The notes under the pieces were generated by a model. That model did not search any database. It worked only from the letters and a program-made list of their open reading frames with translations, and was not told where the DNA came from. This document shows, piece after piece, positions 16,025 to 33,568 of a stretch of 64,000 nt of DNA. This stretch comes from Pectobacterium araliae (lineage in GTDB: Bacteria > Pseudomonadota > Gammaproteobacteria > Enterobacterales > Enterobacteriaceae): the NCBI RefSeq assembly GCF_037076465.1, contig NZ_AP028908.1:496001-560000 (forward strand), given 5' to 3'. The translations under genes were made by a program, and so were the position numbers. Positions within the stretch are counted from its first letter, which is position 1. Each line of letters opens with the position of its first letter.

Positions 16025-19000
16025 TGAAATCCTCTCCCGTATTGCACGGGTGGGCGCGATGCACGCGGGCAATCGACCGACGTTACCGCCTGATTTACCG
16101 GCACCCGGCAGCGGCTCGCCGCCGACCTCACCGGGCAAGGCTATCAAACACAGCAGCTTTCTGGGGGCGCTGCTTGGTGCGGTGGCTGGGGCGCTGGTCG
16201 CCGCCGTCGCGTTTGCCGCTGCCTCTGCTGTCGTTGCCGGCCTGGTATTGTTAACCGGGGTAACGGGCGGAGCAGGACTGGCTCTGGTTATCGGTGCAGC
16301 CAAACTGGCGCTTGGATTCGGGGCTGTATTCGCGTTGAGTGGCTTAATCTCCGATGTCAGTCGAAAGACCGCTGCCATGGTAGACAGTGTCATGCCTGCG
16401 TCGGGTATGGTCAAAGGTGGTTCAAAGACCGTGTTTGTCGAGGGCAACCCAGTGTCCCGCGCCGAAATCGATGCGGTGCTTTGCGATAAACATAACGGCC
16501 CGCAACTGATTGCCCAGGGCAGTGAAACCGTGTTCGTTGAGGGCTACCATGCCGCACGGGTGGGGGATAAAACTGTGTGCGGCGCGACCCTCAAAGAGGG
16601 GGCTTCAACAGTGTTCTTCGGCTCCGGTCAGGCTTCGCCGCTCAAGGTTCAGGATGAGTTCAGTGGCTGGCAGAAGGCGCTGATACTCGCGGTGGAGTTT
16701 CTGGTGCCCCCCAGCCGGGGCCTGTTTCGGGGACTGGGCAAACTCTTCACTAAAGGGCCGATGGCGGTGCTGAGGGGCATGCAGGCCGGGGCATCATTCG
16801 CCCTGAAAGGACTCCGTAGTGCCGTAGAGTGTGCCAAAAATGGTTTTAAGAACAGTAAAGGACTGGCGCGTGTCACCGAATCCGTTCGCGGCTTCCTGAA
16901 AGACCCCGTCTATATCGCCAGTGGCGAGGTCATTGAAAAACGCCTCGATCTGGAACTGGGCCAGACCATTCCTCTGTTGTTTGAACGCACCTACCGCTCT
17001 GGTAGCCCCCACACTGGCTTGCTGGGACACGGCTGGCACGATAGTTGGAGTGAAGTCGCGACCCTCAGCGACGATAACGGTGACCCCCATGTCACCATTA
17101 CGCTGGCGCAGGGCTACGATATCGACTTTACTTTCGGGCTCGGTGCCACCGTGGTGTACTGCGCCGAATACCCCGAATTTAAACTGGTCAAGCAGCATAA
17201 CGGTTTTCACCTGTGGCACCGCGACAGCCAGACCTGGCGTGCCTTTACCGTCAAGCAGGGCGACCAGTTGCTGTTGTCGGCCATTACCGACAACCACCAG
17301 AATCGTATCGACTTTCTCCGCGACCCCAAAGGCTACCTGCGTAAAATACGGCACAGCGACAGCATCGAGCTGTTGCTGGTGTGGCAGGGTGAGTTTCTGC
17401 GTCAGATACAGCGCATTGATGGCGGCCAGAAAACCATGCTGGCCGAATACCGGCAGGACGAACAGGGGCGACTGGTCGAGGCGGATGCCGCCCATGCCTA
17501 TCACCTGTTTTACGAGTATGACAACCATAGCCGTCTGACTCGCTGGCACGACAACGATAAAACCTGGGCGCATTATGAGTATGACCTTCAGGGGCGGTGC
17601 ATTTACACCACCTGTGCTGACGGCTACCTGACCGCCGGTTTTGAGTACCTGACCGACCGCGTGGTGATGACTGACGGACAGGGCCAACGCAGTGAATATG
17701 GCTTCAATGACCTCTACCTGATGGCCTGGGAGAAATCCCCACTCGGCCATGTCACCCATTATGAATACGATGACGTCGGCAACCTGCTGCGGGAAATCTC
17801 TCCGGCAGGGCGGGTGGTGGAATTTGCCTATCTGGATGATACCGGGCTGGTCAGTACCTTTACCGACGGCAGCGGCCACCAGTGGCACTACCAGTATGAC
17901 GACCATGAGCGGCTTGTCGGGATTACCGACCCGCTCGCGCGCCACTGGGCGTGGCAGTACGACAGCACCGGTAATCCGCAGAGCCTGACCGGGCCGGACA
18001 ACAGCGAAGTGTGTTTTGCCTGGAACCGTTACGGCCTGCTGACTGAAGTCAGCGACCAGAACGGTCAGGTACAGGCCAGCCTGTTTTATGACCACCGGCA
18101 GCGCCTGATGAGTGCCACGGATGCAGAATCCCGCACTCAGCAACTGCGCTACGACCCGCAGGACCGACTCACAAGCTGGACGCGCCCGGACGGTTCAACC
18201 TACCGCCTCGGTTATCGCCGTGCAAGCTGGAAGCTACCGGAGCAACTGCTGCGCCCGGATGACAAGCAAGAGCAACGCCAGTACGACAAACATAACAACC
18301 TGCTGAACTACACCGACGGTAACGGCGCAGTATGGGCACAAACCTATGGCGCGTTCGACCTGCTGACCTCACGCACCGATGCGGCAGGCCGCACCTGGCA
18401 GTATGAGTACGACAAAGAAAGCCAGCAGCTTGTCTGCGTTACGGCACCGGACGGCAACCGCTGGCAGTGGTGGCTGGATGCAGACGGACGTGTCATACGT
18501 GAACGTGACATGGCGGGGACGGAAACCCACTATGGTTACGATGAAGACGGTCACTGCATCAGCCTGCGCAACGGCGAAGGAGAAACCCGCCACTTTCTGT
18601 ACGACGGGCGTGGACTGCTGATAAAAGAAACCGCGCCGGACGACACCCTGCACTACCGCTATGACGCGGCAGGTCGGCTGACTGAAGTCACGTCCGCCAC
18701 CAGTCATATCCAGTTGGCGTATGACGAGCGCGACCGTGTGGTAGAGGAGTACAACAGCGGTTCGGTCATCCGACGCCACTATCAGGACGCATCGCACACC
18801 GTTACCCGCAGCCTGTACTGGGACGGTGAAGAGGACAGTGCGGCACTGACCAGCACCTTCCGCTATAGCGCGACGGGTGAACTGCGCCAGGTACAGTTGC
18901 CGGATGGCGCGGAGTTAACGCTGGCTCATGATGCCGCCGGACGTGAATCTACCCGCCACAGCAATGGCGGTTTTACACAGCAGCGTGAATACGACGCCAT

Positions 19001-20270
19001 GGGCTGGCTGACGCGGGAAATGAGTGGCCAGTCGGTGGACGGTCGCCTGCACCCCACCCAGACGCGGGAATACCTCTACGACGGTGCAGGCAACCTGACC
19101 GGCACCCGACGCAACCGCGAAGCGGCTGGCTATCAACTCGATGCCAGCGGACGGGTGCTGTCAGTACTGAGCGGTGGCGCGGGGCGCAGCATCAATACTG
19201 AAGAACAATACCGCTACACCCGCAGTGGCCTGCCACAGGACGCCACCCGCCTGACCGACTGGCAGGCCGGACGCCTGACCCAGCAGGATAACACTCACTA
19301 CCAGTACGACAAGGCCGGACGGCTGATACGTAAACAGGTGGTGCAGCCGGGCTACCGGCCGCAGGTGTGGCACTACCGCTGGGACAGCCGTAATCAGCTT
19401 AGAGTCGTGGACACGCCGACAGGAGAACGCTGGTACTACCGCTACGACCCGTTCGGACGACGTATCGGCAAACGCTGTGAGCAAACGCAGGACGAACTCC
19501 GCTACCTGTGGGACGGCGACCAGATTGCCGAAGTGCGGCACTATCGTGACAACCAGCTTATCAGCCGCCGCCACTGGGTACATAACGGCTGGGAGCTGCT
19601 GGTACAACAGCGGCAAAATACAGACGGCAGTTGGGAAACGGACTTTGTCACCAGCGGCCATAACGGCGAACCGCAGGCCATTTTTAATCCGCAAGGCGAA
19701 CTGCGCTGGCAGGCTCCGCGTACCAACTTATGGGGCCAGCGCTATACCGATAATATTGAAAAACTCGATCCGGGACTGGCGTTTGCCGGGCAATACCGTG
19801 ACGCTGAAAGCGGCTTGTGCTATAACAGATTTCGGTACTATGACCCGACGGGTGGATGCTATGTCTCGCCTGACCCGATAGGGCTGGCGGGGGGAGAGAA
19901 CCTGTATGCTTATGCGCCGAACCCGCTGATGTGGATCGACCCGCTGGGGCTTGCTAAGTGTTCAACCGACAAAACTCGCGTTCGTCATTATACAAACAGG
20001 AAGGGGTCTAACGGAATTATGGATAGTGGGGTTATAAAGGCTCAGGATAATAACCGTGTATATGTTGAACCAGCTAAAAATAAACCATTAAGCCCTAAAG
20101 ATGCAGAATCAAAATATCAAATAAAGCCAGGAAAAGGACGAGACTATATAGAGACAGATGTACCAAATGACTCATTGGAATGGATCACTAATCCTCGCTA
20201 TCACCGTGAAGAACTTACGATTAAAAGTGATGTTAAACTGGATAATCCTCAGGTATTTAGGAGAAAGTGA
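16017..20270 (+). CDS. rhs: PAAR-Rhs effector with ADP-ribosyltransferase-like (HYD1) tip
   Basis: 1417 residues. Residues about 48-112 are very hydrophobic, the prePAAR membrane region bound by EagR; about 130-210 is the PAAR spike tip (SKTVFVEGNPVSR); about 290-1310 are YD repeats forming the Rhs cocoon. The core ends at the conserved PNPLMWIDPLGL. The variable tip (about 104 residues, from KCSTDKTRVRHYTN) contains RHYTNRKGSNGI, VYVEPA and GRDYIETDVP, which resemble HYD1-type ADP-ribosyltransferases. Base composition drops from GC-rich core to AT-rich tip at about 19960. The toxin assignment is by motif memory. The immunity gene follows after one base. Confidence 0.93.
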   Translation: MRDEILSRIARVGAMHAGNRPTLPPDLPAPGSGSPPTSPGKAIKHSSFLGALLGAVAGALVAAVAFAAASAVVAGLVLLTGVTGGAGLALVIGAAKLALGFGAVFALSGLISDVSRKTAAMVDSVMPASGMVKGGSKTVFVEGNPVSRAEIDAVLCDKHNGPQLIAQGSETVFVEGYHAARVGDKTVCGATLKEGASTVFFGSGQASPLKVQDEFSGWQKALILAVEFLVPPSRGLFRGLGKLFTKGPMAVLRGMQAGASFALKGLRSAVECAKNGFKNSKGLARVTESVRGFLKDPVYIASGEVIEKRLDLELGQTIPLLFERTYRSGSPHTGLLGHGWHDSWSEVATLSDDNGDPHVTITLAQGYDIDFTFGLGATVVYCAEYPEFKLVKQHNGFHLWHRDSQTWRAFTVKQGDQLLLSAITDNHQNRIDFLRDPKGYLRKIRHSDSIELLLVWQGEFLRQIQRIDGGQKTMLAEYRQDEQGRLVEADAAHAYHLFYEYDNHSRLTRWHDNDKTWAHYEYDLQGRCIYTTCADGYLTAGFEYLTDRVVMTDGQGQRSEYGFNDLYLMAWEKSPLGHVTHYEYDDVGNLLREISPAGRVVEFAYLDDTGLVSTFTDGSGHQWHYQYDDHERLVGITDPLARHWAWQYDSTGNPQSLTGPDNSEVCFAWNRYGLLTEVSDQNGQVQASLFYDHRQRLMSATDAESRTQQLRYDPQDRLTSWTRPDGSTYRLGYRRASWKLPEQLLRPDDKQEQRQYDKHNNLLNYTDGNGAVWAQTYGAFDLLTSRTDAAGRTWQYEYDKESQQLVCVTAPDGNRWQWWLDADGRVIRERDMAGTETHYGYDEDGHCISLRNGEGETRHFLYDGRGLLIKETAPDDTLHYRYDAAGRLTEVTSATSHIQLAYDERDRVVEEYNSGSVIRRHYQDASHTVTRSLYWDGEEDSAALTSTFRYSATGELRQVQLPDGAELTLAHDAAGRESTRHSNGGFTQQREYDAMGWLTREMSGQSVDGRLHPTQTREYLYDGAGNLTGTRRNREAAGYQLDASGRVLSVLSGGAGRSINTEEQYRYTRSGLPQDATRLTDWQAGRLTQQDNTHYQYDKAGRLIRKQVVQPGYRPQVWHYRWDSRNQLRVVDTPTGERWYYRYDPFGRRIGKRCEQTQDELRYLWDGDQIAEVRHYRDNQLISRRHWVHNGWELLVQQRQNTDGSWETDFVTSGHNGEPQAIFNPQGELRWQAPRTNLWGQRYTDNIEKLDPGLAFAGQYRDAESGLCYNRFRYYDPTGGCYVSPDPIGLAGGENLYAYAPNPLMWIDPLGLAKCSTDKTRVRHYTNRKGSNGIMDSGVIKAQDNNRVYVEPAKNKPLSPKDAESKYQIKPGKGRDYIETDVPNDSLEWITNPRYHREELTIKSDVKLDNPQVFRRK
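17820..19940 (+). repeat. Rhs core segment duplicated at 28971-31090
   Basis: The two stretches are nearly identical base for base with an offset of about 11151. Differences are scattered single bases, denser towards the 3' end. A third, shorter copy (19186-19900 against about 32366-33060) also exists. These long direct repeats are substrates for recombination that could swap toxin tips. Confidence 0.9.
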
Positions 20271-20271
20271 T

Positions 20272-20589
20272 ATGTTAAAAGAAAACGAAAAAATAACCTT
20301 CTCTGGTTCGGAAATTATCGAGGCTATTAAAGAGGTTAACTATATCCTAATTTCACTAAATAAAATAGGTAACCACTATTACAACGAGGCTGAAATATCA
20401 AATGAAAGGGTGATTGAGTATAAACTGGAAACTGCTGATTTTATTGATAGAAATGAAATTTGCACAAAACTAGCTAATATAAGAAAAATATTGTCAGAAA
20501 AATTTAATGATGAACTTGGCACTGACGATATGGATGATATCGAAAGGGCTACTGAAGAAACCATATACTGGGAAAAGCCAGGGGACTAA
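20272..20589 (+). CDS. Probable immunity protein for the Rhs HYD1-like toxin
   Basis: 105 residues, ATG 20272 preceded by AGGAGA; one base separates it from the rhs stop. AT-rich and acidic (many Glu/Asp, ends ERATEETIYWEKPGD). No family is recognised. Its position directly after the toxin tip and its different composition from the rhs core are the standard signs of a cognate immunity gene. Function is inferred from position only. Confidence 0.75.
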   Translation: MLKENEKITFSGSEIIEAIKEVNYILISLNKIGNHYYNEAEISNERVIEYKLETADFIDRNEICTKLANIRKILSEKFNDELGTDDMDDIERATEETIYWEKPGD

Positions 20590-20658: not shown

Positions 20659-20994
20659 TTACAGCTTAATCATTCCCCGCCAGTTCCAGCCCGCCGGGAA
20701 AACGGTAAGCCAGTGCGTAACAGCGTATTCATCGAACGGCGCAATACTCAGCGCTTGCAGGTCTTGCCAGAGTGCGCGGATATCCTGCGTGGTGATGACA
20801 ATACAACCCGGCATGATGCGCAGCTTCAGCGGCTGTCCGGTACTGAACCCGGCTTCCTTCAGCCAGTGGCCGCTGAGGTTAATCGCGGGCGTGTCGTGGT
20901 TGCCCTTAATCGGTCGATAGTCAACACGGGTAAAACGCTCGTGCTGAGAGATTTTAAAAACGGTGGTATCTGGCGTAGAATGCGCGTCAGCCAT
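20659..20994 (-). CDS. symE: SymE family toxin-like protein
   Basis: 111 residues from ATG 20994 (AGGAGTAG upstream on the minus strand). The SymE core is visible: PAINLSGHWLKEAGF, then GQPLKLRIMPGCIVIT. In E. coli SymE is an SOS-induced toxin (AbrB-fold) repressed by the antisense RNA SymR. Unlike E. coli, no LexA box was seen in its upstream 78 bases. It lies downstream of an HTH gene on the same strand. SymE genes often sit beside rhs loci, and truncated copies occur twice more in this window. Confidence 0.85.
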   Translation of the reverse strand: MADAHSTPDTTVFKISQHERFTRVDYRPIKGNHDTPAINLSGHWLKEAGFSTGQPLKLRIMPGCIVITTQDIRALWQDLQALSIAPFDEYAVTHWLTVFPAGWNWRGMIKL

Positions 20995-21072
20995 GGTAAC
21001 TACTCCTTTTAGTTGCTTGTGGTTAGCGGCGTTGGTGTGTTGCAATCACGCCAGCGCCGCGTCAGTTCAGAC

Positions 21073-21491: not shown

Positions 21492-23358
21492 ATGGCACGC
21501 ATCCCCGAATCCGAGTTGCAGCACCTGAAAGCCGCCGTGCCGTTAGTGGATGTGGTGCGCTCGCAGGGGCGGCAGGTGTTCAAGCGCGGTAAAGACGTCG
21601 TGGTGCTGTGTCCGTTCCATCAGGAGAAAAACCCGTCCTGCGTTATCAGCTCGGACAAAAATCTCTATCACTGCTTCGGCTGTGACGCAGGCGGCTCGGT
21701 GCTGGACTGGGTGATGAAAACGGAAGGCTTAAGCCTGCACCGGGCGGCTGACCGTCTGCGCGGTGAGCTGGGTGTGGTGCCTGCGGCAGCGCCGTTGCCG
21801 ACTGTTGGTGATATCGCGGATGAGCAGGAAAGGCAGTCACTGCTGAGCCGGGTGGTTGAGTTCTATCACCACACGCTGCTGAACGCGCCGGAGGCTATCG
21901 CCTATCTGGAAAAGCGCCGCCTCAACCATCCTGAGTTAGTCGCGCAGTTCCGCTTAGGGTTCGCTAATAGGACGCTGGGCTACCGTCTGCCCGCGAAGAA
22001 GCTGAAAGACGGCGCAGCGGTCAGAGGCCAGTTGCAGGCCATCGGCGTGATGCGCTCATCCGGCCATGAACATCTGGCGGGGTCGTTAGTCGTTCCGGTT
22101 ATCGATATGAACGGTCAGGTGCGGGAGATGTACGGTCGTAAGGTGGGCAGTGAGTTACGCAAAGGCACGCCGCTGCATCTGTATCTGCCGGGCGCACATG
22201 GCGGGGTGTGGAACGAGCAGGCACTGGTTGCCAGTAAAACGGTCATCTTATGTGAAGCGCTTATCGATGCGATGTCGTTCTGGGTGGCGGGCTACGGCGG
22301 CGTATGCGCTGAAACTGCTCCAGTCGGACGGAGAGTTAACCATCGCCAGTACGGGTAAGGATGATACGACGGGAAACCTTGTCACCAAGCAATACACGGT
22401 AAAAGGTCCCGTCATGTTGATGCTGACCACCACGGCCATCGACGTGGATGAAGAACTGTTAAACCGCTGTCTTGTTCTCTCGGTGAACGAGTCCCGTGAA
22501 CAGACTGAGGCAATCCACGCCTTGCAGCGGCATAAACAGACGCTGGAAGGGTTGCTGATGGAGAACGAGAAAGGCTATCTCACCGAACTGCACCAAAACG
22601 CCCAGCGGTTACTGAAACCGTTAAAGGTGGTGAACCCGTTTGCCTCACAGCTTACGTTCCTGAGCGACAAGACGCGCACGCGCCGTGACCATATGAAATA
22701 CCTGACGTTAATCCAGTCTATCGCGCTGTTGCACCAGTATCAGCGGGAAGTGAAGACGGTGGAGCACCGAGGAACGGTCATCGAATATATCGAGGTTGAA
22801 CGGTCGGATATCGTGCTGGCCAACAAGCTGGCGCATGAAATCCTTGGTCGCACACTGGATGAAATGCCGCCACAGACGAGGAAGCTGCTGCTGCTGATAC
22901 AGGGCTGGATAAAAGAGAGCGGCCAGCCGAAAACGGAATACCACTTCACCCGCAAACAGCTACGGGACGCGGTGCAGTGGGGCGATACGCAACTGAAAAT
23001 CCACCTTGCCCGGCTGGTTGAACTGGAATACCTGATGCTGCATAAGCGCGGGCTGACGTTCTGCTATGAACTGCTGTTCGATGGTGATGCTCAGTCGGAT
23101 AACGCGTATCTGTGCGGGCTTATCAATATACCGGAAGCGTCCCCGGAAACGGTAAAAATAACAGAGAAAGATAACTACGACTCCGCCCGGTCGGGGGGAA
23201 ATGAAAAGCGGTCGGCTTCTGGTCGGGGTGCGGTCGGCGGTCGGTCGGATAAGGCTATCACCACTAAAGCCAGTGCTGGAAAGGGTTCTGTGCCATCCGG
23301 TCGGGTTAACGGCAAAAGCACTGTTCCGGCAACACACGGTAAGCCCATCGTACCGTAG
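21492..23358 (+). pseudogene. CHC2/Toprim DNA-primase-like gene with internal deletion and frameshift
   Basis: The first frame (21492-22300) has a CHC2 zinc finger (CPFHQEKNPSC ... YHCFGCDAGG, residues about 40-70) and the start of a Toprim domain (VILCEALIDAMSFWVAGYG). At about 22300 the homologous sequence jumps to a downstream region in another frame (YALKLLQSDGELTIASTGKD, from 22303) that continues to 23358. That part (LLNRCLVLSVNESREQT) resembles the end of the large primase/ATPase proteins of integrative elements, and the Walker region between is missing. A complete relative is expected to be around 950 residues. The product is therefore not functional as a primase. Confidence 0.75.
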
Positions 23359-23391
23359 TTCCCTTCCCCCTCTCACGCAGGACGCGCCGCC

Positions 23392-24405
23392 ATGACCAAA
23401 CCCAATCCATCCAGCCCGAAAACCCCTTACCTTAGCCGCCAGACGCAGACGTTACGCCAGCACACCGGGCATTACCTTGACCGCCTGAACGCCGCAGGCT
23501 ACAGCGCCCGCACGCAGGAGAGCTACCGGGAGCGGCTGCTGCCGTTCGTGGCGTGGTGTGAGGACAGAGGGTTGCAGTATGCGCCACAGGTGAGTCTTGC
23601 GGTGCTGGAAGGGTATCAGCGCTGGCTGCGGGGTTATCGCAAGGCAGACGGTCACCCGTTAACGGCAGGCAGTCAGTTAAACCGTCTGACGGGTATCCGT
23701 ATGCTGTTCCGCTGGCTGCTGAAGCGGCACGTTATCCTGTATAACCCGGCAGAAATGTTGACGTTACCGAAGGAAGAGAAACGGCTTCCGGCGCAGGTGC
23801 TGAGCGTGGAGGAAACGGGAGGCGTGTTGCAGTCGGTGGAGAGCGGGACGGTTCTCGGGCTGCGTAACCGGGTGATACTGGAAGTGTTGTGGAGCAGCGG
23901 CGTTCGCCGGGCGGAAGCAGTGAGCCTGATGCTGAATGATATCGACCTGAGCCGGGGCGTGATGGTGGTGCGTCAGGGCAAGGGGAATAAAGACCGGGTG
24001 GTGCCGCTGGGAGAGCGGGCATGTAAGTGGCTGGTACGCTACCTGAATCATGCGCGGCCAGAACTGGCGAAACGCTATGACAGCGGGCACCTGTTTATCA
24101 GCCACCGGGGAAAAGGACTGGCGCGGGTGACACTGACGCAGATGGCAGGGAAAGCTATCCGTGAAACGGGACACCTGGATAAACCGGGGGCGTGCCATGT
24201 GTTCCGGCACTCGATGGCCACGCAGATGCTGGAGAACGGCGCAGACACGCGGCACATACAAGCCATCTTAGGCCATGAGAAGCTGGAGACGACGCAAATC
24301 TACACGCGGGTCGCCATCGGTCACTTGCAGAAGGTGCATGAACAGACGCACCCGACAGAGCGGAAACAGAAAGCCCGGCGTAAACCGGACAGCACCAAAA
24401 AGTAG
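23392..24405 (+). CDS. XerC/D-like tyrosine recombinase
   Basis: 337 residues. SAM-like N-terminal domain to about residue 115, catalytic domain thereafter with Arg (SSGVRRAE), Lys (GKGNKDR), HxxR (HVFRHSMAT), GH (ILGHEKLETTQIYTRV) with Tyr as nucleophile. It follows the CHC2 gene by 33 bases; this primase-recombinase pair is common in one group of enterobacterial integrative elements. The frame is intact. It could act on the GC-rich, hairpin-rich region directly downstream. Confidence 0.9.
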   Translation: MTKPNPSSPKTPYLSRQTQTLRQHTGHYLDRLNAAGYSARTQESYRERLLPFVAWCEDRGLQYAPQVSLAVLEGYQRWLRGYRKADGHPLTAGSQLNRLTGIRMLFRWLLKRHVILYNPAEMLTLPKEEKRLPAQVLSVEETGGVLQSVESGTVLGLRNRVILEVLWSSGVRRAEAVSLMLNDIDLSRGVMVVRQGKGNKDRVVPLGERACKWLVRYLNHARPELAKRYDSGHLFISHRGKGLARVTLTQMAGKAIRETGHLDKPGACHVFRHSMATQMLENGADTRHIQAILGHEKLETTQIYTRVAIGHLQKVHEQTHPTERKQKARRKPDSTKK

Positions 24406-25360
24406 CTCGTTCCCTTCAACATCGCGGTACGGTGCAGGGCAAACGCTGCGCCGTCCGTGGCGCACCGCTTGCCTTATGTGGCTAAGGCGCTCCGGCGGTA
24501 AATGTCGCCCGGCCAGCGCCAGCCAACGGCGTTCTCTGCACTCAACGTTGCTGGCCGAACGTCATTCAACATAATGTGGCATTACGCGAAAGCCGCTGAA
24601 CGCGGCCAACGCGTAACACACATTATATCTGCGCCGGTCAGGGTAAGGGCGCACTGCGGTCTTCCTCGGCAAAGGCGTGCGGCTGACCGCCGGGGTTCGG
24701 CTCTCTGGCGCGGTGTGGCGCACAGCTCGCCAGCTCGCTCTGCTGCGAACATCAGCATCCTTCCCTGGCTCTGACGGTGTGGCCGCCTTCCCTGGCGGCG
24801 CTGGCATCGGTGCCAACCTTCAGCAAACATCAACGTCAACATCAACGCCAAAGCGGAAGCCGTTCCTTCGTCACGGCGCTTAACGGCTTAATGCCCGCCC
24901 GGCTGCGTCTGGCTACGCGGGGTCGCAGTCACAGGCTCCTTGCTCCTTCCCCGCTCGCCAGCTTCCGCATCCCGCCCCGGTGTGGCGTGGTCATGCAAAC
25001 CCGCCGCTCTCTCCGGCACCGTGCAACAGAGCGTCGCAGGCCGACGCTTGCGGACTCTTTGCTGCCCGCACCCGCAGAACCCGCACGGCTTCCCCAACCG
25101 AGTTGCGGAAGCCGTGCGGGTTGAGGTGGTAAACCCCGAAAGACAAAACGACTAATGGCAGCGGCTGTCGCCGCTGCTATGATGTGGCTTAGGCAGACAG
25201 GGAAGTCACAGCATGGCGGTAGCGTGTCCGGGGGTAAAAGTGCGTGTCGGGGTGTTCGGGTTACGGGCGTGTTAATGTGGCCGAAAACGCTTCCTGAAAA
25301 GCCTGCCACTTCAACAGGTTAAGTGCGCTAAAAAGTACGACGAACCTCTGGTAATCCCTA
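24406..25360. other. GC-rich gene-free region with strong hairpins
   Basis: About 950 bases with no credible gene: open frames here lack codon bias, start signals and recognisable domains. The stretch contains GCCGCC/GGCGGC (24782-24799), a perfect 16-bp inverted repeat (25078-25093 with 25107-25122) and GCAGCGGC/GCCGCTGC (25158-25177). It ends where rhs homology resumes. It may hold an attachment site or origin for the recombinase module. Confidence 0.6.
25078..25122. repeat. Perfect 16-bp inverted repeat
   Basis: AACCCGCACGGCTTCC (25078-25093) is the exact reverse complement of 25107-25122 around a 13-nt loop. It is not followed by a T-run. Confidence 0.85.
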
Positions 25361-25652
25361 TGACCCGATAGGGCTACTTGGTGGGGAGAGTAACTACGGG
25401 TATGTTCAGAATCCGGTCTGTTGGATCGACCCATTCGGGTTGGCTGGGTGTTCCAAAGAGTTAGCACAAAGAAAAGCACAGGAACTTCGTGATAGTGCTA
25501 CATCAAATACACAAAGAAGTAAGTTACCCAGAGCAACATCGGCGGTAGTCGATAAGGCTACAGGTAAAGTCTATTTTGGATTCAGTGGGCGACCTCTTCC
25601 TAATTCTATTCACCCCCATTTGGCAGAAAGAATGCCTAAATAGCTTTGCATA

Positions 25653-26690
25653 TTACCGCTCCACTTTGGTCAGTCCGTGCTGATTACCCGGAAACGGTGA
25701 GGCGGCCTTCATAAACTGAGTAACACGGTTGAGTAATTGCCACATATACCGACATTGATGATTACGCGTTACCGTTTCATGTAACGACAACCATAGCCGC
25801 TCTATCGGGTTTAGCCACGGAGAATAGATTGGCAAAAACAGTATCCTGAACTTTTTATTACCTGCTAACCATCGTTCGACCTTGCGGCTTTTGTGAATGA
25901 TATAATTGTCAACCACCAACGTTATCGTTCTGGCCCGCCGATATGTTCGTTTCAATATTACTAACAGATTGATAAATAAGTCAGAGTTCTTACTGCTGCC
26001 GCTGACATAATGGACTTGTCCTGTCCCTGCATGCAGCGCGCCCGCCAGGTAATGTTTTTGATTTATCCCCGGCGTGGCGATGCGTTTTTGCTGTCCTTTT
26101 AGACACCAGTCCGAGCCAATTTTCGGGTTTAAATCGATATCGACTTCATCTTGATAAAACACCGGATTATCAACCGAGTTTTGCACCAGAGCTTGCTCGA
26201 TGGCTGTCCGTTTTTCCTCATATTGAGGGTCTTTTATCTTCAGTGTCGGCGCGGCTCTGCGCCAGACAAGGCCAGCCTGTCGCAGGTAGCGGTGCAATGT
26301 GACGGGATGAAGCGAGATATCAAAAAGCCGATTAACGACAAGCGCCAAAAGTTCGGTACTCCAGCGGGAGCGCAGCCAGCCGAAATCCTGTGGTGAACGC
26401 TGCACAAGAAGCGGCAGAATGCGCAAGATATCATCAACCGGCCACTGTGGCTCACGACCGGGCTTGAGACTTTTTAATCCATTAACACCATATAAAGTAA
26501 ACAAATTAATCCACCGACCTACCGAGGAACGAGCCGCACACAATATTCTGGCGACCTCAGTAACGGTCATTCCTTGATGCAACATGAGCATCGCCATCAG
26601 TCGGCGAGCGTGGTTTTTATCATGAGTTTGTTGAGCTTCTCTTTTCATAAGACGTCGTTCTTCATCAGGGATAAATGCTATGATCGGCAT
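25653..26690 (-). CDS. IS630 family transposase
   Basis: 345 residues. Helix-turn-helix domain at the N-terminus (MTVTEVARILCAARSSVGRW), then the DDE catalytic domain: FYQDEVDIDL, TLVVDNYIIHKSRKVERWL (first 19 residues of that motif given here) and PIYSPWLNPIERLW. The frame is intact and the gene runs against the host rhs fragment. It should catalyse cut-and-paste transposition into TA sites. Its upstream region is separated from the left transposon end by the IS110-type element, so it may now lack its own promoter or a usable pair of ends in cis at the normal distance. Confidence 0.93.
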   Translation of the reverse strand: MPIIAFIPDEERRLMKREAQQTHDKNHARRLMAMLMLHQGMTVTEVARILCAARSSVGRWINLFTLYGVNGLKSLKPGREPQWPVDDILRILPLLVQRSPQDFGWLRSRWSTELLALVVNRLFDISLHPVTLHRYLRQAGLVWRRAAPTLKIKDPQYEEKRTAIEQALVQNSVDNPVFYQDEVDIDLNPKIGSDWCLKGQQKRIATPGINQKHYLAGALHAGTGQVHYVSGSSKNSDLFINLLVILKRTYRRARTITLVVDNYIIHKSRKVERWLAGNKKFRILFLPIYSPWLNPIERLWLSLHETVTRNHQCRYMWQLLNRVTQFMKAASPFPGNQHGLTKVER

Positions 26691-26843
26691 AACTCAGTCC
26701 GGTTAGTGATGTGGGATATTTGGCGATTGATCAGATCGCTTAAATCGGACTGAGTTCCCTTCGAGTGATGTGATGGACGTCCCTCCTCAACATAATCCTG
26801 CCACACTTATGTTGAGCCGTCCCATTTATAGAGGAACAACATC

Positions 26844-27878
26844 ATGAACACGATAAAAGTCGTCGGTATCGATCTGGCTAAATCCGTTTTTCAGCTTTGT
26901 GTCTGGATGAATGATGGGACCGTTGCCTGGAATCGAAAAGTTTCTCGCAGCAAGCTGTTAGATACTGTTCGTCAATTCCCGCCGGATACACTTATCGCAA
27001 TGGAAGCTTGTGCAACCTCGCATTACTGGGGGCGGACTTTCCAATCCATGGGATACGCCATCCGGCTCATTCCAACCCAACATGTAAAGGCGTTAACTCG
27101 TCATCAGAAAAATGATGCCAATGATGCTCTAGCAATATGTGAGACGGCATTTCGTCCGGGGATTCACTTTGTTGCTGTAAAAACTCTTGAGCAGCAAGAT
27201 ATCAAAGCGCTGCGTTGTGCCCGTCAGTTGATGGTCGAACAGCGCACCGCCGCCGCCAATCAAATTCGTGCTCTGGCCGCTGAGCAGGGCTTCGAGTTCC
27301 CGGTTGGGATACACACTTTGCAACAGCGATTACCCGATTTGATTGAAGATGCGGAAAAGCCTGTGTCTCCGGTATTACGCCATTTGCTTTCCACTTTATT
27401 GGAAAACATCCACACACTGAATGAATATATTCGTTCAACAGAATATGAAATCGCAGCATTGTGTCAACAGCAACCCCGGTATCGAGCACTGATGACTATA
27501 CCGGGTGTTGGCCCGCTCATCGCCGCCGCTTTTTTAAGTGAGGTTGATGCAGAACAATTTGCTAACGGAAGACAACTTTCCGCCTGGTGTGGTCTGGTTC
27601 CCCGGCAACATAGTTCCGGCGGGAAACACATCCTCACTTCGATGACTAAAAATGGTAACTGCGACCTTCGGACACTCATCATTCATGGAGCCAGAGCGGT
27701 CATGCGCTGTGCCCAAAAGCGGGATGACCGTCTTGGAAGATGGCTTAATCATGTCACTGAGCGACGGGGAAAAATGAAAGCCACCGTGGCGCTGGCAAAT
27801 AAGTTAACACGTATTGTCTGGCGGTTGCTGTCTGAACCGGTTGATTTCAATATGGATAAGGCATTTGCGATGAAGTAA
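26844..27878 (+). CDS. IS110 family transposase
   Basis: 344 residues. RuvC-like DEDD domain begins VVGIDLAKSVFQLCVW; KNDANDALAI lies near residue 95; the C-terminal domain has TIPGVGPLIAAAFL and the Ser-containing RQHSSGGK motif that carries the serine nucleophile. IS110-family enzymes use a DEDD domain and a serine, guided by a structured bridge RNA from the element's non-coding end. The frame is intact and the start has GAGGAAC upstream. Confidence 0.94.
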   Translation: MNTIKVVGIDLAKSVFQLCVWMNDGTVAWNRKVSRSKLLDTVRQFPPDTLIAMEACATSHYWGRTFQSMGYAIRLIPTQHVKALTRHQKNDANDALAICETAFRPGIHFVAVKTLEQQDIKALRCARQLMVEQRTAAANQIRALAAEQGFEFPVGIHTLQQRLPDLIEDAEKPVSPVLRHLLSTLLENIHTLNEYIRSTEYEIAALCQQQPRYRALMTIPGVGPLIAAAFLSEVDAEQFANGRQLSAWCGLVPRQHSSGGKHILTSMTKNGNCDLRTLIIHGARAVMRCAQKRDDRLGRWLNHVTERRGKMKATVALANKLTRIVWRLLSEPVDFNMDKAFAMK

Positions 27879-28100
27879 TGATTTAGTTCGGCACAAAGTA
27901 AAAGATTTCCTGAGTTTGCAGGCACTGATGAGAAAACGGTAAACCAACCCTGTAATAACCTGAAGTAGATCCAGGTAGAAAATACCGGTCAAGTGATAAG
28001 GAAACAGGGTGCGGATGACATCATGGCGCGGGAAAATTTTCCCAAAAAGACGCCGGATATATGACAGCAAACCGTATCACGTCAGTACTTGTACGCCACG
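27879..28100 (+). ncRNA. Candidate bridge-RNA region of the IS110-type element
   Basis: The roughly 220-base non-coding right end of the element. In IS1111-group elements a bridge RNA that pairs with target and donor DNA is encoded in such an end. No RNA fold was computed; this is a family-based inference. Confidence 0.35.
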
Positions 28101-28332
28101 GGACGTCCATATATGATCTACTATTTTGCAAAGCTATTTAGTCCTAGCTTAGAAAGATGGCCTGTTCAAAATTGTGCAGAATTCAAAGGTGTGAATCAGG
28201 CTTTGCTGGATGGAGCGAGGTTAGAAAATTTGGAGGTTCATACAGTGAAAACTATATCAGGCGAAGCATTCCCAATGTGTTCTAATTGTCAAACTACCAT
28301 ATTTGGTACGATAGTTACGAGTGGGTAATTAT

Positions 28333-28770
28333 ATGAATAAATTAGTTGACCTAGCGGCAAAATATGGCGAAATAAAAAGACAGGATACTAACTTGGCTAA
28401 GTGCTTGGCAAGCATAGGAAATTTTGGCCATTCTGTTTCAGATGGATTGATTTCGTTTTTACAGGAATATAACGGTTTTCAAGGATATCACTCTGCTTAC
28501 AAAGATAATAATAGGTCTAGTAAGTTTTTCTATATAGACCCCGAAAAAGCTATCTTGGAACTATACAAGGAACAAGTTGAAAATTATGAAAAAATAACAG
28601 AATGTCCTTTAGTTCCTATTGGTGAATGTGATAACGGATACATTATCCTCATGTATGGTGATGATGTTATATACGGTGTTTTTGATGAATACATATATAA
28701 ATATGGGAAGGACATTGAATCTTGTTTTGATGTTCTAATTAATGGTAAGGAAGCTATCGAAATTAATTAA
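28333..28770 (+). CDS. SUKH-type immunity protein for the split deaminase toxin
   Basis: 145 residues, ATG 28333, four bases after the toxin stop (28326-28328). AT-rich, acidic, with a pattern VSDGLISFLQEYNGF, YIDPEKAI and FDVLINGKEAI that fits SUKH (SMI1/KNR4) superfamily proteins, the largest immunity superfamily for polymorphic toxins; the SUKH-3 subgroup often pairs with YwqJ deaminases. The frame is intact, so immunity may persist although the toxin is interrupted. Confidence 0.75.
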   Translation: MNKLVDLAAKYGEIKRQDTNLAKCLASIGNFGHSVSDGLISFLQEYNGFQGYHSAYKDNNRSSKFFYIDPEKAILELYKEQVENYEKITECPLVPIGECDNGYIILMYGDDVIYGVFDEYIYKYGKDIESCFDVLINGKEAIEIN

Positions 28771-28777
28771 AAATAAC

Positions 28778-28961
28778 GCCGGAAGCGGTCCCAACGATCC
28801 TTCCGGCTTTATTTTACCTGCTGTTTAGTACAACGATCAGACATTAATCTCCGTCTCGATCACTATCCTTCCCCGTTCCACCGTAACGGTAATCGGCATC
28901 CCCGTCATAAAACCCGACTCTTCCAGCCAGCGGCCTTTAAGGTTAGTCGCCGACGGCGGGT
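28778..28961. repeat. Intergenic cassette, copy 1 (terminator plus symE 3' end)
   Basis: Nearly identical to 32018-32201. It begins with the hairpin GCCGGAAG (28778-28785) / CTTCCGGC (28800-28807) followed by TTTATTTTA, a terminator for the upstream immunity gene, and ends in the symE remnant. Both copies lie directly between an immunity gene and a truncated rhs. Confidence 0.88.
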
Positions 28962-28962: not shown

Positions 28963-31538
28963 GAGTGGTGGAATTTGCCTATCTGGACAACAGCGGACTG
29001 GTCAGTACCTTTACCGACGGCAGCGGCCACCAGTGGCACTACCAGTATGACGACCATGAGCGGCTTGTCGGGATTACCGACCCGCTCGCGCGCCACTGGG
29101 CGTGGCAGTACGACAGCACCGGTAATCCCCTGAGCCTGACCGGGCCGGACAACAGCGAAGTGCGTTTTGCCTGGAACCGTTACGGCCTGCTGACTGAAGT
29201 CAGCGACCAGAACGGTCAGGTACAGGCCAGCCTGTTTTATGACCACCGGCAGCGCCTGATGAGTGCCACGGATGCAGAATCCCGCACTCAGCAACTGCGC
29301 TACGACCCGCAGGACCGACTCACAAGCTGGACGCGCCCGGACGGTTCAACCTACCGCCTCGGTTATCGCCGTGCAAGCTGGAAGCTACCGGAGCAACTGC
29401 TGCGCCCGGATGACAAGCAAGAGCAGCGCCAGTACGACAAACATAACAACCTGCTGAACTACACCGACGGTAACGGCGCAGTATGGGCACAAACCTATGG
29501 CGCGTTCGACCTGCTGACCTCACGCACCGATGCGGCAGGCCGCAGCTGGCAGTATGAGTACGACAAAGAAAGCCAGCAGCTTGTCTGCGTTACGGCACCG
29601 GACGGCAACCGCTGGCAGTGGTGGCTGGATGCAGACGGACGTGTCATACGTGAACGTGACATGGCGGGGACGGAAACCCACTATGGTTACGATGAAGACG
29701 GTCACTGCATCAGCCTGCGCAACGGCGAAGGAGAAACCCGCCACTTTCTGTACGACGGGCGTGGACTGCTGATTAAGGAAACCGCGCCGGACGACACCCT
29801 GCACTACCGCTATGACGCGGCAGGTCGGCTGACTGAAGTCACGTCCGCCACCAGTCATATCCAGTTGGCGTATGACGAGCGCGACCGTGTGGTAGAGGAG
29901 TACAACAGCGGTTCGGTCATCCGACGCCACTATCAGGACGCATCGCACACCGTTACCCGCAGCCTGCACTGGGACGGTGAAGAGGACAGTGCGGCACTGA
30001 CCAGCACCTTCCGCTATAGCGCGACGGGTGAACTGCGCCAGGTACAGTTGCCGGATGGCGCGGAGTTAACGCTGGCTCATGATGCCGCCGGACGTGAATC
30101 TACCCGCCACAGCAATGGCGGTTTTACACAGCAGCGTGAATACGACGCCATGGGCTGGCTGACGCGGGAAATGAGTGGCCAGTCGGTGGACGGTCGCCTG
30201 CACCCCACCCAGACGCGGGAATACCTCTACGACGGTGCAGGCAACCTGACCGGCACCCGACGCAACCGCGAGGCGGCAGGCTATCAGCTCGATGCCAGCG
30301 GACGGGTGCTGTCAGTACTGAGTGGCGGCGCAGGACGTGGCGTCAATACCGAAGAGCAGTATCGCTACACCCGTAACGGGCTGCCGCAGGACACGACAAG
30401 GCTGACCGACTGGCAGGCCGGACGCCTGACGCAGCAGGACAGCACCCACTACCAGTACGACAAGGCCGGGCGGCTGATACGCAAACAGGTGGTGCAGCCG
30501 GGCTATCGGCCACAGGTGTGGCACTACCGCTGGGACAGCCGTAACCAGCTTAGAGTCGTGGACACGCCGACCGGAGAGCGTTGGTTCTACCGCTATGACC
30601 CGTTCGGACGACGTATCGGCAAACGCTGTGAGCAGACCCATGAAGACATCCGCTACCTGTGGGACGGCGACCAGATAGCCGAAGTGCGGCACTACCGCGA
30701 CAACCAGCTTATCAGCCGCCGTCACTGGGTACATAACGGCTGGGAGCTGCTGGTACAACAGCGGCAAAATACAGACGGCAGTTGGGAAACGGACTTTGTC
30801 ACCAGCGGCCATAATGGTGAACCGCAGGCCATTTTTAATCCGCAAGGCGAACTGCGCTGGCAGGCTCCCCGCACCAACTTATGGGGGAAGCGTTATACCG
30901 ATAATATTGAAAGTCTCGATCCGAGACTGGCCTTTGCCGGGCAATACCGTGACAGCGAAAGCGGGCTATGTTATAACCGTTTTCGCTATTATGATCCGAG
31001 TGGTGGATGCTATGTCTCGCCTGACCCGATAGGGATAGCGGGCGGGGATAATAATTATGCTTACGCGCCTAATCCTATTAGTTGGGTTGATCCATTGGGG
31101 TTGGCTGGGTGCTCTGTACTTGATGATATTATAAAAGACGCAAATAAAGTGGCTTCACCGGGTGGTGGAATTACATCAAAACAGGCTCAAATATTGCGGA
31201 ATAATCTTCCAGTCATTCAGAGGCGTACTGTTTTCCAAAACCAAATGGCTAGAAAAGAGTTTGTAAAAAGCCAAGATTATTTAATGAGACAATGGGAAGC
31301 TAATATGGGAGTGTCGTGGCCGAAAGGAGCTACACCACATCATATAATTCCGTTGGAGAGTGGAGGGGCAAATAAATGGTGGAATTTAATGCCAACAAAT
31401 GGAACATTGCCGAACCATTCACTTCCCGGAATACCCGGCCCTCATGCTGCTGGGGGAACGCTTCGCACAACGATTCAACAAGGGCGCAAAGCTTTACCCC
31501 CTGGAACGATAACCGATTTAAGGCTGCCATATGGTTGA
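28963..31538 (+). pseudogene. Orphan Rhs fragment 2 with HNH-type nuclease tip
   Basis: About 857 open codons, 5' truncated: no membrane region, no PAAR, no first half of the Rhs core. It begins [13 protein letters not shown] and follows the main rhs core almost base for base to the conserved [13 protein letters not shown] (about 31105). The unique tip contains [11 protein letters not shown] and NLMPTNGT, an HNH/His-Me-finger pattern for DNA cleavage. The first in-frame start is GTG 28965 without a good ribosome-binding site, so the fragment should be silent unless recombined into an intact rhs. The tip frame is open and followed by an overlapping immunity gene. Confidence 0.85.
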
Positions 31539-32010
31539 TATAACTGAAGAGATAAAAAAAATAGAAGCTGCTAGCTTTTTCTCTCTCATGGGAATTAACA
31601 ACCTCCATGAAGGAGATGTGATATTCATTGAAAATGTAAGAAAAGTATTTATTGAGCCATCAGATGCTGATTTTAAAGGGTTCTATAAAAAAACCGAGTG
31701 GCTTCCTACTTCACCCACTCAAGATGATCCATTTTATAAGAAACAAGCTAATCCAAAAGATCTTATTGAATTACGTAAAGAGATAAATAAACGTATAATA
31801 TCCGCAACAAGAGAGCTTAATAAAATTGATTTTATCTCCCCCCCTCATGATTTTAGTGTTGCAGCAAGAAATGCAATTTGTTTTGCTTTTAGGCAACTGA
31901 TTACAGAGAGGTATTTTTCTCTTGGTAACAGGTGGGAAAGGATTACTGATATTTATTACTCAGGCCATTGGCCTGTAGGTTTTGCAAAAGAAAGATATAT
32001 AGTTATTTAA
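31531..32010 (+). CDS. Probable immunity protein for the HNH Rhs tip
   Basis: 159 residues; ATG 31531 overlaps the end of the rhs fragment (stop 31538) by 8 bases. AT-rich, soluble, no domain recognised; contains [18 protein letters not shown] and a C-terminal ERYIVI. Overlap with the toxin tip and the AT-rich composition identify it as the likely cognate immunity gene. It appears to belong to no family I know. Confidence 0.72.
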
Positions 32011-32017
32011 ACAATAA

Positions 32018-32201
32018 GCCGGAAGCGATCCCAACGATCCTTCCGGCTATTTTTTACCTGCTGTTTAGTTCAACGATCAGACATTAATCTCCGTCTCAAT
32101 CACTATCCTTCCGCGCTCCACCGTCACGGTGATCGGCATCCCGGTCATAAACCCCGACTCCTCCAGCCAGCGGCCTTTAAGGTTAATCGCCGATGGCGGG
32201 T
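32018..32201. repeat. Intergenic cassette, copy 2 (terminator plus symE 3' end)
   Basis: Second copy of the 28778-28961 cassette with a few base changes. Hairpin GCCGGAAG (32018-32025) / CTTCCGGC (32040-32047), then TATTTTTTA. Confidence 0.88.
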
Positions 32202-32265
32202 TGGGCTTGCCGTTTTGCGGGGCGTATCCCACAGTGTAGTAACGTGCTGTTTTTTCCACCGCACT
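32077..32265 (-). pseudogene. symE 3' remnant 2
   Basis: About 60 codons on the minus strand (ARYYTVGYAPQNGKPNPPS ... VIETEINV), longer than remnant 1 but still lacking the start of SymE. It runs into rhs sequence at about 32262 (LTGTFSYNAAGELRQ on the plus strand). Confidence 0.8.
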
Positions 32266-33568
32266 CACCGGCACTTTCAGCTACAACGCGGCGGGTGAAC
32301 TGCGTCAGATACTGTCACCAGACGGTGTGGAGCTGACGCTGACTCACGATGTCGCTCGTCACAGAAGCGCGAATACTGAAGAACAATACCGCTACACCCG
32401 CAGTGGCCTGCCGCAGGATGCCACCCGCCTGACCGACTGGCAGGCCGGACGCCTGACGCAGCAGGACAGCACCCACTACCAGTACGACAAGGCCGGGCGG
32501 CTGATACGTAAACAGGTAGTACAGCCGGGCTACCGGCCGCAGGTGTGGCATTACCGCTGGGATAGCCGTAACCAGCTAAGGGTTGTTGATACCCCAACGG
32601 GAGAGCGCTGGTACTACCGCTACGACCCGTTCGGACGGCGCATCGGCAAGCGCTGTGAGCAAACGCAGGACGAACTCCGCTACCTGTGGGACGGCGACCA
32701 GATTGCCGAAGTGCGGCACTACCGCGACAACCAGCTTATCAGCCGCCGCCACTGGGTGCATAACGGCTGGGAGCTGCTGGTACAACAACGCCAGAATACG
32801 GACGGTAGCTGGGAAACGGACTTTGTCACCAGCGGCCATAACGGCGAACCGCAGGCCATTTTTAATCCGGAAGGCGAACTTCGCTGGCAGGCTCCGCGTG
32901 CCAACTTATGGGGCCAGCGCTATACCGATAATATTGAAAGTCTTGATCCGGGACTGGCGTTTGCCGGGCAATACCGTGACGCTGAAAGCGGCTTGTGCTA
33001 TAACAGATTTCGGTACTATGACCCGACGGGTGGATGCTACGTCTCGCCTGACCCGATTAGTGTTTTGGGTGGTGATAATAACTATGGATATGTATATAAC
33101 CCGATGGGTTGGGTTGACCCATTTGGGTTGGCAGCATGCGGGGCTGGGTCTGGAGGAAAAGGTCTCGGTGGGCATCAGGCTGTCGATCGTGCTGCTGGTG
33201 AGTTGAATGCGGCAACGCAAAGAGCGGCTCGTCTTCTTGATCGTGGTGGGCATATGAATACTGCATGGGGAAAAATTCACCAGAAATGGGCTAATAATAC
33301 CCATGTGCCTCAGTGGCTTAAGAACGTATCACGAGGAAATGCTATTCAGCAAATGACAGACAAGTTAACTGTGGATAATAGATATCTTAAAGATATTGTC
33401 CGAAATAGGACAGGGGAATGGTGGGGAAGTTTGCGGCCTGATTATCATTTAGAACTTCCGGGTGGAAAGGTTGCAGTGTTTGATATAACAACGCCAGGTC
33501 AGGCTCCTAAGATATCAAAATATAACGTTAAAGGCGTGACGGACTGGCTGATTAATATTTTATATTAA
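32262..33568 (+). pseudogene. Orphan Rhs fragment 3 with restriction-endonuclease-like tip
   Basis: 5' truncated. After about 90 bases of a divergent rhs (TFSYNAAGELRQILSPDG) it jumps, with an internal deletion near 32360, to the same core as the main rhs from [10 protein letters not shown] onward. The core ends MGWVDPFGLAACG (about 33130). The tip has LRPDYHLELPGG and VAVFDITTPGQ followed by KYNV, resembling a PD-(D/E)xK endonuclease active site (Asp and Glu/Asp around a K). Promoterless and lacking PAAR. Tip frame is open; the next gene starts 10 bases later. Confidence 0.82.

What the first reader, a model, noticed from the sequence alone, without database searches (positions are those of the whole stretch)
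25361..28328. A Rhs deaminase tip interrupted by an IS630 that contains an IS1111-type element; exact excision restores the frame
The sequence shows a 12-bp terminal repeat AATAGCTTTGCA at 25639-25650 and its complement at 28127-28138, with TA on each side. Deleting 25639-28140 (element plus one TA) gives ATGCC TA GTCCTAGC and an open frame through both halves of the deaminase. A second repeat pair (26773-26783, 28100-28110) brackets an IS110 transposase inside. The immunity gene behind the toxin stays intact, so selection for immunity may outlast the toxin.
Basis: partly seen in the sequence, partly recalled or inferred. Interest (0 to 1): 0.75.

Follow-up and report, generated by a model that had tools for sequence, protein, structure and literature searches.

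The report
RNA-guided jumping gene hunts IS630
A bacterial toxin gene is split by a jumping gene (IS630) that itself holds a second jumping gene near one end; all nine full copies of that second element in this genome sit at the same spot of an IS630-type element, so it is likely aimed there by a predicted guide RNA of its own, and the toxin gene is probably only a bystander.

Summary
The nested insertion is real. An IS630 element (25639-28138, TA on both sides) splits a YwqJ-like deaminase cassette, and a complete IS1111-type element (26766-28113) lies inside its right end. The toxin is the lesser story: the cassette is an orphan Rhs tip with about 31 codons of Rhs core and a stop just upstream. 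The main finding is target choice. All 9 full-length copies of the IS1111 element in this genome sit at one place and orientation in an IS630-family right end (4 in IS630-A, 5 in IS630-B, 66-67% alike); four uninterrupted ends show the empty site. The non-coding region behind its transposase holds two short stretches matching the target (27964-27971, 27990-27997), in the order published for IS1111 seekRNAs. Across 25 distinct elements these stretches vary with each element's own target (0 of 20,000 permutations as good). IS630-aimed elements form one clade (100/99) among relatives, many of which sit at IS3 ends, in IS982-like genes or beside IS5-type transposases (with IS630, 23 of 40 contexts). 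Guide-RNA action and movement are inferred. Precedents exist (IS4321 in Tn21 ends, IS1383 in IS1384). The toxin halves were not joined; an intact relative carries both collinearly in one frame.

The parts
25341..25636 (+). first piece of the orphan Rhs-CT cassette (about 31 codons of Rhs core, then the start of the deaminase tip)
   Evidence: 94% identical to the intact frame in G019 (L113); core resemblance to other rhs copies 69-74%; first in-frame stop upstream at 25329
25637..25638 (.). TA flanking IS630, left
   Evidence: read directly
25639..25650 (+). IS630 left terminal repeat AATAGCTTTGCA
   Evidence: same end in the other A copies
25653..26690 (-). IS630 transposase, 345 aa, uninterrupted
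   Evidence: NF033545 247 bits (cut-off 100); DDE_3; motifs YQDEV, VVDN, NPIERLW present, (their roles recalled)
26691..26765 (.). IS630 right end, inner part; its last bases are the left half of the IS1111 target (CGAG^)
26766..28113 (+). complete IS1111-type element (1348 bp): 7-bp extension, repeat, transposase, non-coding region, repeat, 3-bp extension
   Evidence: 9 places in the genome 100% identical over this stretch; empty sites
26773..26783 (+). left subterminal inverted repeat ATGGACGTCCC
26844..27878 (+). DEDD transposase (344 aa) of the IS1111-type element
   Evidence: NF033542 324.7 bits (cut-off 140); PF01548 and PF02371
27912..28069 (+). conserved part of the non-coding region, predicted seekRNA/bridge RNA
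   Evidence: aligned with 19 other sequences; fold of 27879-28113 z -2.5; no Rfam match
27964..27971 (+). guide 1, AGTAGATC, complement of the target's right half (GATCTACT)
   Evidence: variable columns (mean identity 0.64 against 0.89 elsewhere)
27990..27997 (+). guide 2, CAAGTGAT, same as the target's left half plus TGAT
   Evidence: guide part variable (0.76 over 27989-27993), TGAT constant (0.975)
28100..28110 (+). right subterminal inverted repeat GGGACGTCCAT
28114..28138 (.). outer 25 bp of the IS630 right end: right half of the IS1111 target and the terminal repeat (28127-28138)
28139..28140 (.). TA flanking IS630, right
   Evidence: read directly
28143..28328 (+). second piece of the deaminase tip
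   Evidence: 100% identical to the intact frame in G019; PF14431 18.5 bits, below cut-off
28321..28770 (+). SUKH-3-type immunity gene, frame intact
   Evidence: PF14433 36.1 bits (cut-off 23); relatives in 3 other genomes of the 25 searched in the genus (own included)

Best explanation
The 2.5-kb insert in the deaminase cassette is an IS630 element whose right end holds a complete IS1111-type element, which is predicted to be aimed at IS630 right ends by a guide RNA made from the non-coding region behind its transposase. Shown: the anatomy, the fixed site and orientation in all 9 full copies in the genome, empty sites without target duplication, and guide stretches that vary with the target across relatives. 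Inferred: that the RNA is made, binds the transposase, pairs with both strands of the IS630 end and directs insertion of a circular intermediate there, as published for other IS1111 elements. Also inferred: IS630 entered the orphan Rhs cassette by ordinary TA-targeted insertion, alone or already loaded, so the toxin gene is a bystander and the immunity gene remained because it lies outside the insert.
For: 9 of 9 full-length copies (11 matches; the other two are fragments of 136 and 70 bp) adjoin an IS630-family right end at the same base and in the same orientation. Hosts are two lineages 66-67% alike: 4 of 4 full A copies and 5 of 8 full B copies are filled; 3 B copies and one 97% A-like copy show the empty site. 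The only 3 exact matches to AGTGATCTAYTATT in the genome are those 3 empty B ends. In other genomes, full copies of 94% or more lie in IS630-type ends too: G021, G259 (junctions identical to L119, Martelella alba) and G088 (identical to L133); a second G088 copy (L181, L256) has only its left flank in an IS630 end. Guide 1 matches the target 8 of 8 in A and 7 of 8 in B; guide 2 with TGAT matches 8 of 8 in B and in the commonest empty end of the genus. Of 18 empty IS630 right ends among the 30 loci fetched in the genus, 11 match the 13-base target CAAGTGATCTACT exactly, 5 with one mismatch, 1 with two, 1 lacks it. Covariation over 25 distinct elements (this one included): own guide 1 6.12 of 8 against 3.92 for other elements' targets, guide 2 4.16 of 5 against 2.55; 0 of 20,000 permutations reach either; the same with one element per guide pair (n 19). 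The guides are in the IS1111 order given in PMC11187229 (introduction and half of the results read). IS630-aimed elements form one clade, 100/99: 6 rows from 4 genomes.
Against: No RNA, complex or transposition was observed. The IS630-A copies, this one included, mismatch guide 2 at one base (CGAG against CAAG), and B mismatches guide 1 at one. Misfits among the 25: guide 1 at 4 of 8 or fewer in five (L067 2, better if slid by one; L036 3; L037, L062 and L181 4), guide 2 0 of 5 in L064. The guide frame was chosen by eye on these same elements, so the test is not blind. 19 of 50 candidate elements lacked the conserved frame and were not tested, the IS5-type group among them. Relatedness makes the permutation figure optimistic. 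Rfam has no match. RNAalifold finds little covariation (-0.37 kcal/mol; 3 of 28 pairs with changes on both sides).
Confidence: 0.85

Rival explanations
1. The inner element moved rarely by itself; IS630 carrying it moves as one 2.5-kb unit, and the many identical nested copies are copies of that unit.
For: All 4 full A copies are 100% identical over the stretch searched, all loaded, each with both terminal repeats and TA. The insertion point lies 25 bp inside the end and leaves both 12-bp repeats and the transposase frame whole.
Against: Identical inner elements sit in A and B hosts that are only 66-67% alike and in a divergent B copy (L021/L031), and near-identical ones in other IS630 types of G021, G259 and G088; that needs several independent insertions. 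It may still explain part of the copy number.
Confidence: 0.3
2. The fixed site comes from recognition of the IS630 end by the transposase protein or by DNA shape, with no guide RNA.
For: No RNA was measured; one short motif is present at every site.
Against: Relatives with 70-80% identical transposases use different targets, and differences between them lie in the non-coding stretches that match each target.
Confidence: 0.06
3. One reading: the main event is inactivation of a Rhs deaminase toxin with selection keeping its immunity gene.
For: Toxin split, SUKH-3 frame intact; an intact relative of the toxin exists in G019.
Against: The cassette is an orphan without Rhs body, so loss of the toxin frame may carry no cost; the same kind of nested pair sits at eight other sites of the genome; selection after insertion cannot be tested with one genome.
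Confidence: 0.12

Closest known systems
IS1383 in the inverted repeats of IS1384 (Pseudomonas putida; Mol. Genet. Genomics 265:1004, 2001; only the title seen, in the reference list of PMC11208160)
   Same: an element of this family whose specific target is the end of another insertion sequence
   Different: its host is not an IS630 element as far as recalled; no guide mapping seen; sequences not compared here
IS4321/IS5075 in the terminal repeats of Tn21-family transposons (J. Bacteriol. 185:6371, 2003; only the title seen, in reference lists; paper not held)
   Same: IS1111 type, subterminal repeats, targets ends of another mobile element
   Different: target is a transposon's terminal repeat itself (title); here the site is 25 bp inside the IS630 end and leaves the terminal repeat whole
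ISEc11, ISKpn4, ISPa11 with seekRNA (PMC11187229; abstract, introduction, two of four parts of the results, one further section and passages read)
   Same: subterminal repeats, 7/3-bp extensions, downstream non-coding region, two target-matching stretches in the same order
   Different: their targets are a short linear site, attC sites and REP sequences; here a DDE insertion sequence
IS621 bridge RNA (PMC11208160; passages read)
   Same: DEDD recombinase guided by its own non-coding RNA; IS1111 members predicted to carry it in the right end
   Different: IS110 group, RNA in the left end, REP targets

Membership tests
IS1111 group of the IS110 family | DEDD transposase of 330-350 aa | tested here: met
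   344 aa, NF033542 324.7 bits, PF01548 + PF02371; GIDLAK, MEAC, NDANDA, SSGG present
IS1111 group of the IS110 family | subterminal inverted repeats of 11-13 bp with 7-bp left and 3-bp right extensions | tested here: met
   11-bp perfect repeat; empty sites are consistent with ends at 26766 and 28113
IS1111 group of the IS110 family | long non-coding region downstream of the transposase | tested here: met
   27879-28099, 221 bp before the right repeat
IS1111 group of the IS110 family | one target, one orientation, no target duplication | tested here: met
   9 of 9 full copies; empty sites in 3 B copies and one A-like copy
IS1111 group of the IS110 family | seekRNA with top-strand complement before bottom-strand match | tested here: met
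   sequence matches and covariation only; no RNA measured
IS1111 group of the IS110 family | RNA bound to the transposase; circular intermediate | not testable with these tools
   needs the bench
IS630 family | IS630 transposase, terminal inverted repeats, TA on both sides | tested here: met
   NF033545 247 bits; repeats and TA in 12 of 12 full copies of the genome
YwqJ-like deaminase (PF14431) | profile score over the cut-off | tested here: inconclusive
   window pieces: no match and 18.5 bits (cut-off 25.9); intact relative in G019 28.8 bits
SUKH-3 immunity (PF14433) | profile score over the cut-off, placed behind the toxin | tested here: met
   36.1 bits, cut-off 23
orphan Rhs-CT cassette | toxin tip and immunity gene without Rhs body, short stretch of core | tested here: met
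   in-frame stop at 25329; within 25300-25460 core resemblance only over 25361-25453

The most novel reading that the evidence does not exclude
This element belongs to a lineage of RNA-guided insertion sequences that live by invading other insertion sequences. By changing two short guide stretches the lineage has re-aimed among IS3 ends, IS630 right ends, IS982 transposase genes and IS5-type ends. In the IS630 branch the insertion spares the host's terminal repeats and transposase, so the host can carry its parasite along: a hitch-hiker that turns each new IS630 copy into a vehicle.
Probability: 0.45. Interest if true: 0.75.

Novelty: new variant of a known kind. Interest (0 to 1): 0.57.

Why it matters
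It gives a natural, readable test set for guide reprogramming: about two dozen related elements with different guides and known landing sites. It also suggests an RNA-programmed parasite-of-parasite relation between insertion sequences, which can be tested with two plasmids in a laboratory strain. If the host IS stays mobile, it would show how an element bound to one sequence can still spread through a genome.

Tried and rejected
Chance nesting was rejected: 9 of 9 full copies at one site. A 4-bp target duplication (ATCA on both sides) was considered and rejected: the empty sites show that one copy can be assigned to the element's 7-bp extension, as PMC11187229 does for ISEc11. Rfam at E up to 1 on 25600-28800 gave nothing. 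A first version of the guide test caught the wrong CCTG and showed no signal for guide 1 (2.77 of 8 against 2.72); I saw this from its output and corrected the frame. The corrected frame was one I had already picked by eye from the same elements, so the test is not blind. E. coli genomes held 1 partial match in 5,426 (megablast). Plasmids held 1,823 records with a match, only 4 covering 80% or more of the element. Literature: searches with IS1111/IS110/seekRNA, IS1383/IS1384 (20), IS1111 + IS630 (55), bridge RNA + other insertion sequences (56, none), IS110 family + nested + IS630 family (63, none), IS4321/Tn21 (64) and IS110 + other IS elements (71): from the titles and abstracts listed I saw no report of an IS1111 element aimed at IS630, nor of a lineage hunting several IS families; most listed papers were not opened. 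PMC11187229 does not contain 'IS630' in its main text. Subscription papers and ISfinder are not held.

Rows dropped: the repeat search gave 115 rows, most pairs read in both orientations; one search used those that begin TGAT (50), of which 19 lacked the conserved frame and 31 gave 25 distinct ones; one search kept 40 contexts after removing pairs with more than 3 mismatches, repeated flanks, and L048 and L136 by hand; the tree lost three more (L057, L181, L197, matches too short). In one search the transposases used to find neighbours were themselves taken from these loci, so it locates them; the names come, where I had chosen the ORFs given. The first toxin piece was compared only with Pfam and with L113, not searched through genomes.
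Full report
Anatomy. The window lies at 496001-560000 of a 4.66-Mb one-contig genome. Around 25.6-28.1 kb the sequence reads, from left to right: a first piece of a toxin tip, TA, an IS630 element with its transposase on the minus strand (25653-26690), and, ending 25 bp before the right end of that IS630, a complete second element with a DEDD transposase on the plus strand (26844-27878). Then come the last 25 bp of IS630, TA, the second piece of the tip and an intact SUKH-3 immunity gene.

The toxin side. The tip is a YwqJ-like deaminase: the window's second piece scores 18.5 bits against PF14431 (cut-off 25.9), the intact relative found in genome G019 scores 28.8. G019 was the only other genome, of 25 searched in the genus with the own one included, that matched the second piece (100% identical). 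With the two pieces kept apart, both match one open frame of the relative, collinear and in the same frame. Upstream of the tip, within 25300-25460, only 25361-25453 resembles the other rhs copies of the window (69-74%), and a stop lies in frame at 25329. This is an orphan cassette of the kind described beside full rhs genes (PMC3150448 and PMC7043789, seen in a search listing with the start of the abstract). It was probably silent before the insertion (inference). Immunity relatives occur in 3 further genomes of the 25; dN/dS of 0.54 from 13 differences to G019 is too little to argue selection.

Where the inner element sits. A DNA search of the own genome gives 4 full IS630-A copies (100%), 8 full IS630-B copies (66-67%) and one split A-like copy (97%), besides a 45-bp remnant. 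It gives 9 full copies of the inner element, all 100% identical, plus two fragments. Every one of the 9 adjoins the right end of an IS630 copy, at the same base and in the same orientation: all 4 A copies and 5 of 8 B copies. The 3 other B copies and the A-like copy show the uninterrupted end. Comparing filled with empty gives the element as TGATGTG-ATGGACGTCCC...GGGACGTCCAT-ATA, 26766-28113, and the target as CRAG^TGATCTAYTATT (the A-like empty end reads CGACTATT after TGAT), with no duplication. The 7-bp and 3-bp extensions are those reported for IS1111 elements (PMC11187229, introduction read). All 12 full IS630 copies are bounded by TA (left sides, right sides). The target motif AGTGATCTAYTATT, exact, occurs nowhere else in the genome than in the 3 empty B ends.

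Beyond this genome. In the genus (25 genomes) one more full copy, 95% identical, lies in an IS630-type right end of G021, where a second full IS630 copy is empty. In the family (392 genomes, where in most cases only the two best candidates per genome were scored) G259 carries one full copy of 95% and G088 two of 95% and 94%. The G259 copy and the first G088 copy have the same junctions as the named loci L119 (Martelella alba BGMRC 2031) and L133 (an Enterobacterales MAG) and lie in IS630-type ends. The second G088 copy (L256, same junctions as L181) has an IS630 left flank but another sequence on the right. So of 13 full copies of 94% or more that I saw, 12 have both flanks in an IS630-type end. 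Of 18 empty IS630 right ends that could be read among the 30 loci fetched in the genus, 11 hold CAAGTGATCTACT exactly, 5 differ at one base, 1 at two, 1 lacks it.

The guide. The non-coding region behind the transposase folds better than shuffles (z -2.5) and is conserved among relatives (84% mean column identity over 20 sequences). It holds AGTAGATC (27964-27971), the complement of the right half of the target, and 3' of it CAAGTGAT (27990-27997), the left half plus TGAT. That is the order found in IS1111 seekRNAs (PMC11187229, part 2 of the results read). The same two stretches are among the more variable columns of an otherwise conserved region (0.64 and 0.76 against 0.89; 6 of 151 eight-column windows are as variable as guide 1, four of them being or overlapping it). 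In 25 distinct elements, this one included, they match the element's own target better than those of others: guide 1 6.12 of 8 against 3.92, guide 2 4.16 of 5 against 2.55, 0 of 20,000 permutations for either, and again 0 with one element per guide pair (n 19). Examples: L157 has GTAAAACC for TGGTTTTAC, L127 AGTTGACC for TGGTCAAC, L126 AGTGATCC for TGGATCAC. Misfits are L067, L036, L037, L062 and L181 for guide 1 (4 of 8 or fewer) and L064 for guide 2 (0 of 5); 19 of 50 candidates lacked the conserved frame and were not tested. The frame had been chosen by eye on these elements. This is evidence for RNA guidance from sequence only.

A lineage aimed at insertion sequences. Of 40 distinct insertion contexts (this genome's among them), 23 have, within 1 kb, a transposase of IS630 (6), IS3 (11), IS982-like (3) or IS5-like (3) type; 17 have none of these. 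In 7 of the 11 IS3 cases a reading frame ends 6-15 bp from the insertion point, behind sequences like TGTAG^TGGTCAA, as at an IS3 end. In the IS982-like cases the insertion splits the transposase gene. The ten ORFs given all match the IS3 family model (8 over its cut-off; L131 at 153 and L061 at 47 bits fall below 160). One search names DDE_Tnp_1_3 (L060, L157), DDE_Tnp_1_5 (L145, L183), DDE_3 (L056) and rve (L122); the L159 ORF and the short L055 piece gave nothing. 'IS982-like' and 'IS5/IS903-like' are my reading of those Pfam names from memory. On the transposase tree (37 rows) the IS630-aimed elements, 6 rows from 4 genomes, form one clade (100/99) inside a group that otherwise holds one IS3-labelled and three unassigned rows; the IS982 label needs two changes. 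This suggests that guides have been re-aimed more than once; the direction is inference. Other relatives sit where none of these four transposase types lies within 1 kb (for example CGCTTTG^TGCCCC in L146-L148; CAGAGG^TGACTCA in L121), so hunting insertion sequences is frequent here, not a rule.

How it probably works. IS630 inserts at TA sites, here in an orphan toxin cassette. The IS1111 element, as a circle, would be guided to the IS630 right end by its two stretches and insert there once, since insertion splits the target. The site lies between the IS630 transposase gene and its right terminal repeat and leaves both whole, so the loaded IS630 may stay mobile and carry the guest. Whether copies arose by repeated homing, by joint movement or both cannot be decided from one genome. 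Several separate homing events are needed in any case, because identical guests sit in hosts 66-67% alike.

Novelty. IS1111 elements aimed at ends of other mobile elements are known: IS4321 and IS5075 in Tn21-type ends, IS1383 in IS1384 ends (titles in reference lists). In the listings of the searches named under Tried and rejected I saw none aimed at IS630 and no lineage spread over several IS families. I therefore file it as a new variant of a known kind, mostly for the lineage-wide re-aiming; the element alone would be a new member.

Noticed in passing
window 15963-20270, 28965-31538, 32327-33568: One full-length Rhs gene is followed by further Rhs fragments with different tips and small genes behind them (20158-20589, 31531-32010), an array of cassettes; four more long rhs frames (1388-1694 aa) lie elsewhere in the genome.
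   Followed up: partly
window 20659-21045 (-), 32077-32274 (-), remnant near 28850-28960: SymE-like small proteins (recalled resemblance, no family search) recur behind the Rhs cassettes.
   Followed up: no
window 21492-24405: A DnaG-type primase gene and a XerC-like tyrosine recombinase (552 bits to PRK01287) lie between the full rhs gene and the orphan cassettes, possibly an integrated element.
   Followed up: partly
L054 (own genome 4032900-4033039) and L039 (G001:C1:2866259-2866387): A similar left-end fragment of an IS1111 relative sits behind the same short flanking sequence in two species, apparently an old shared remnant.
   Followed up: no
L064:1430-2790: Guide 1 is of the IS982-aimed kind, but the element sits at TGTAG^TGGTATAAG and its transposase match is broken in two pieces; a mosaic or decayed element would explain it.
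   Followed up: no
L146, L147, L148, L152, L172: Relatives in Colwellia, Psychromonas and Thalassotalea sit before TGCCCC (CGCTTTG^TGCCCC in three), partly in short palindromes, a target class that does not look like an insertion sequence.
   Followed up: no
own genome 1701839-1701936 (L023): A third, divergent IS630-like right end (AGGGATCTACTATT) that the inner element has not entered, within 10 kb of two nested IS630 copies.
   Followed up: no
plasmid collection: 1,823 plasmid records hold matches to the inner element, 990 in Klebsiella and 749 in Escherichia; only 4 cover 80% or more of it.
   Followed up: no
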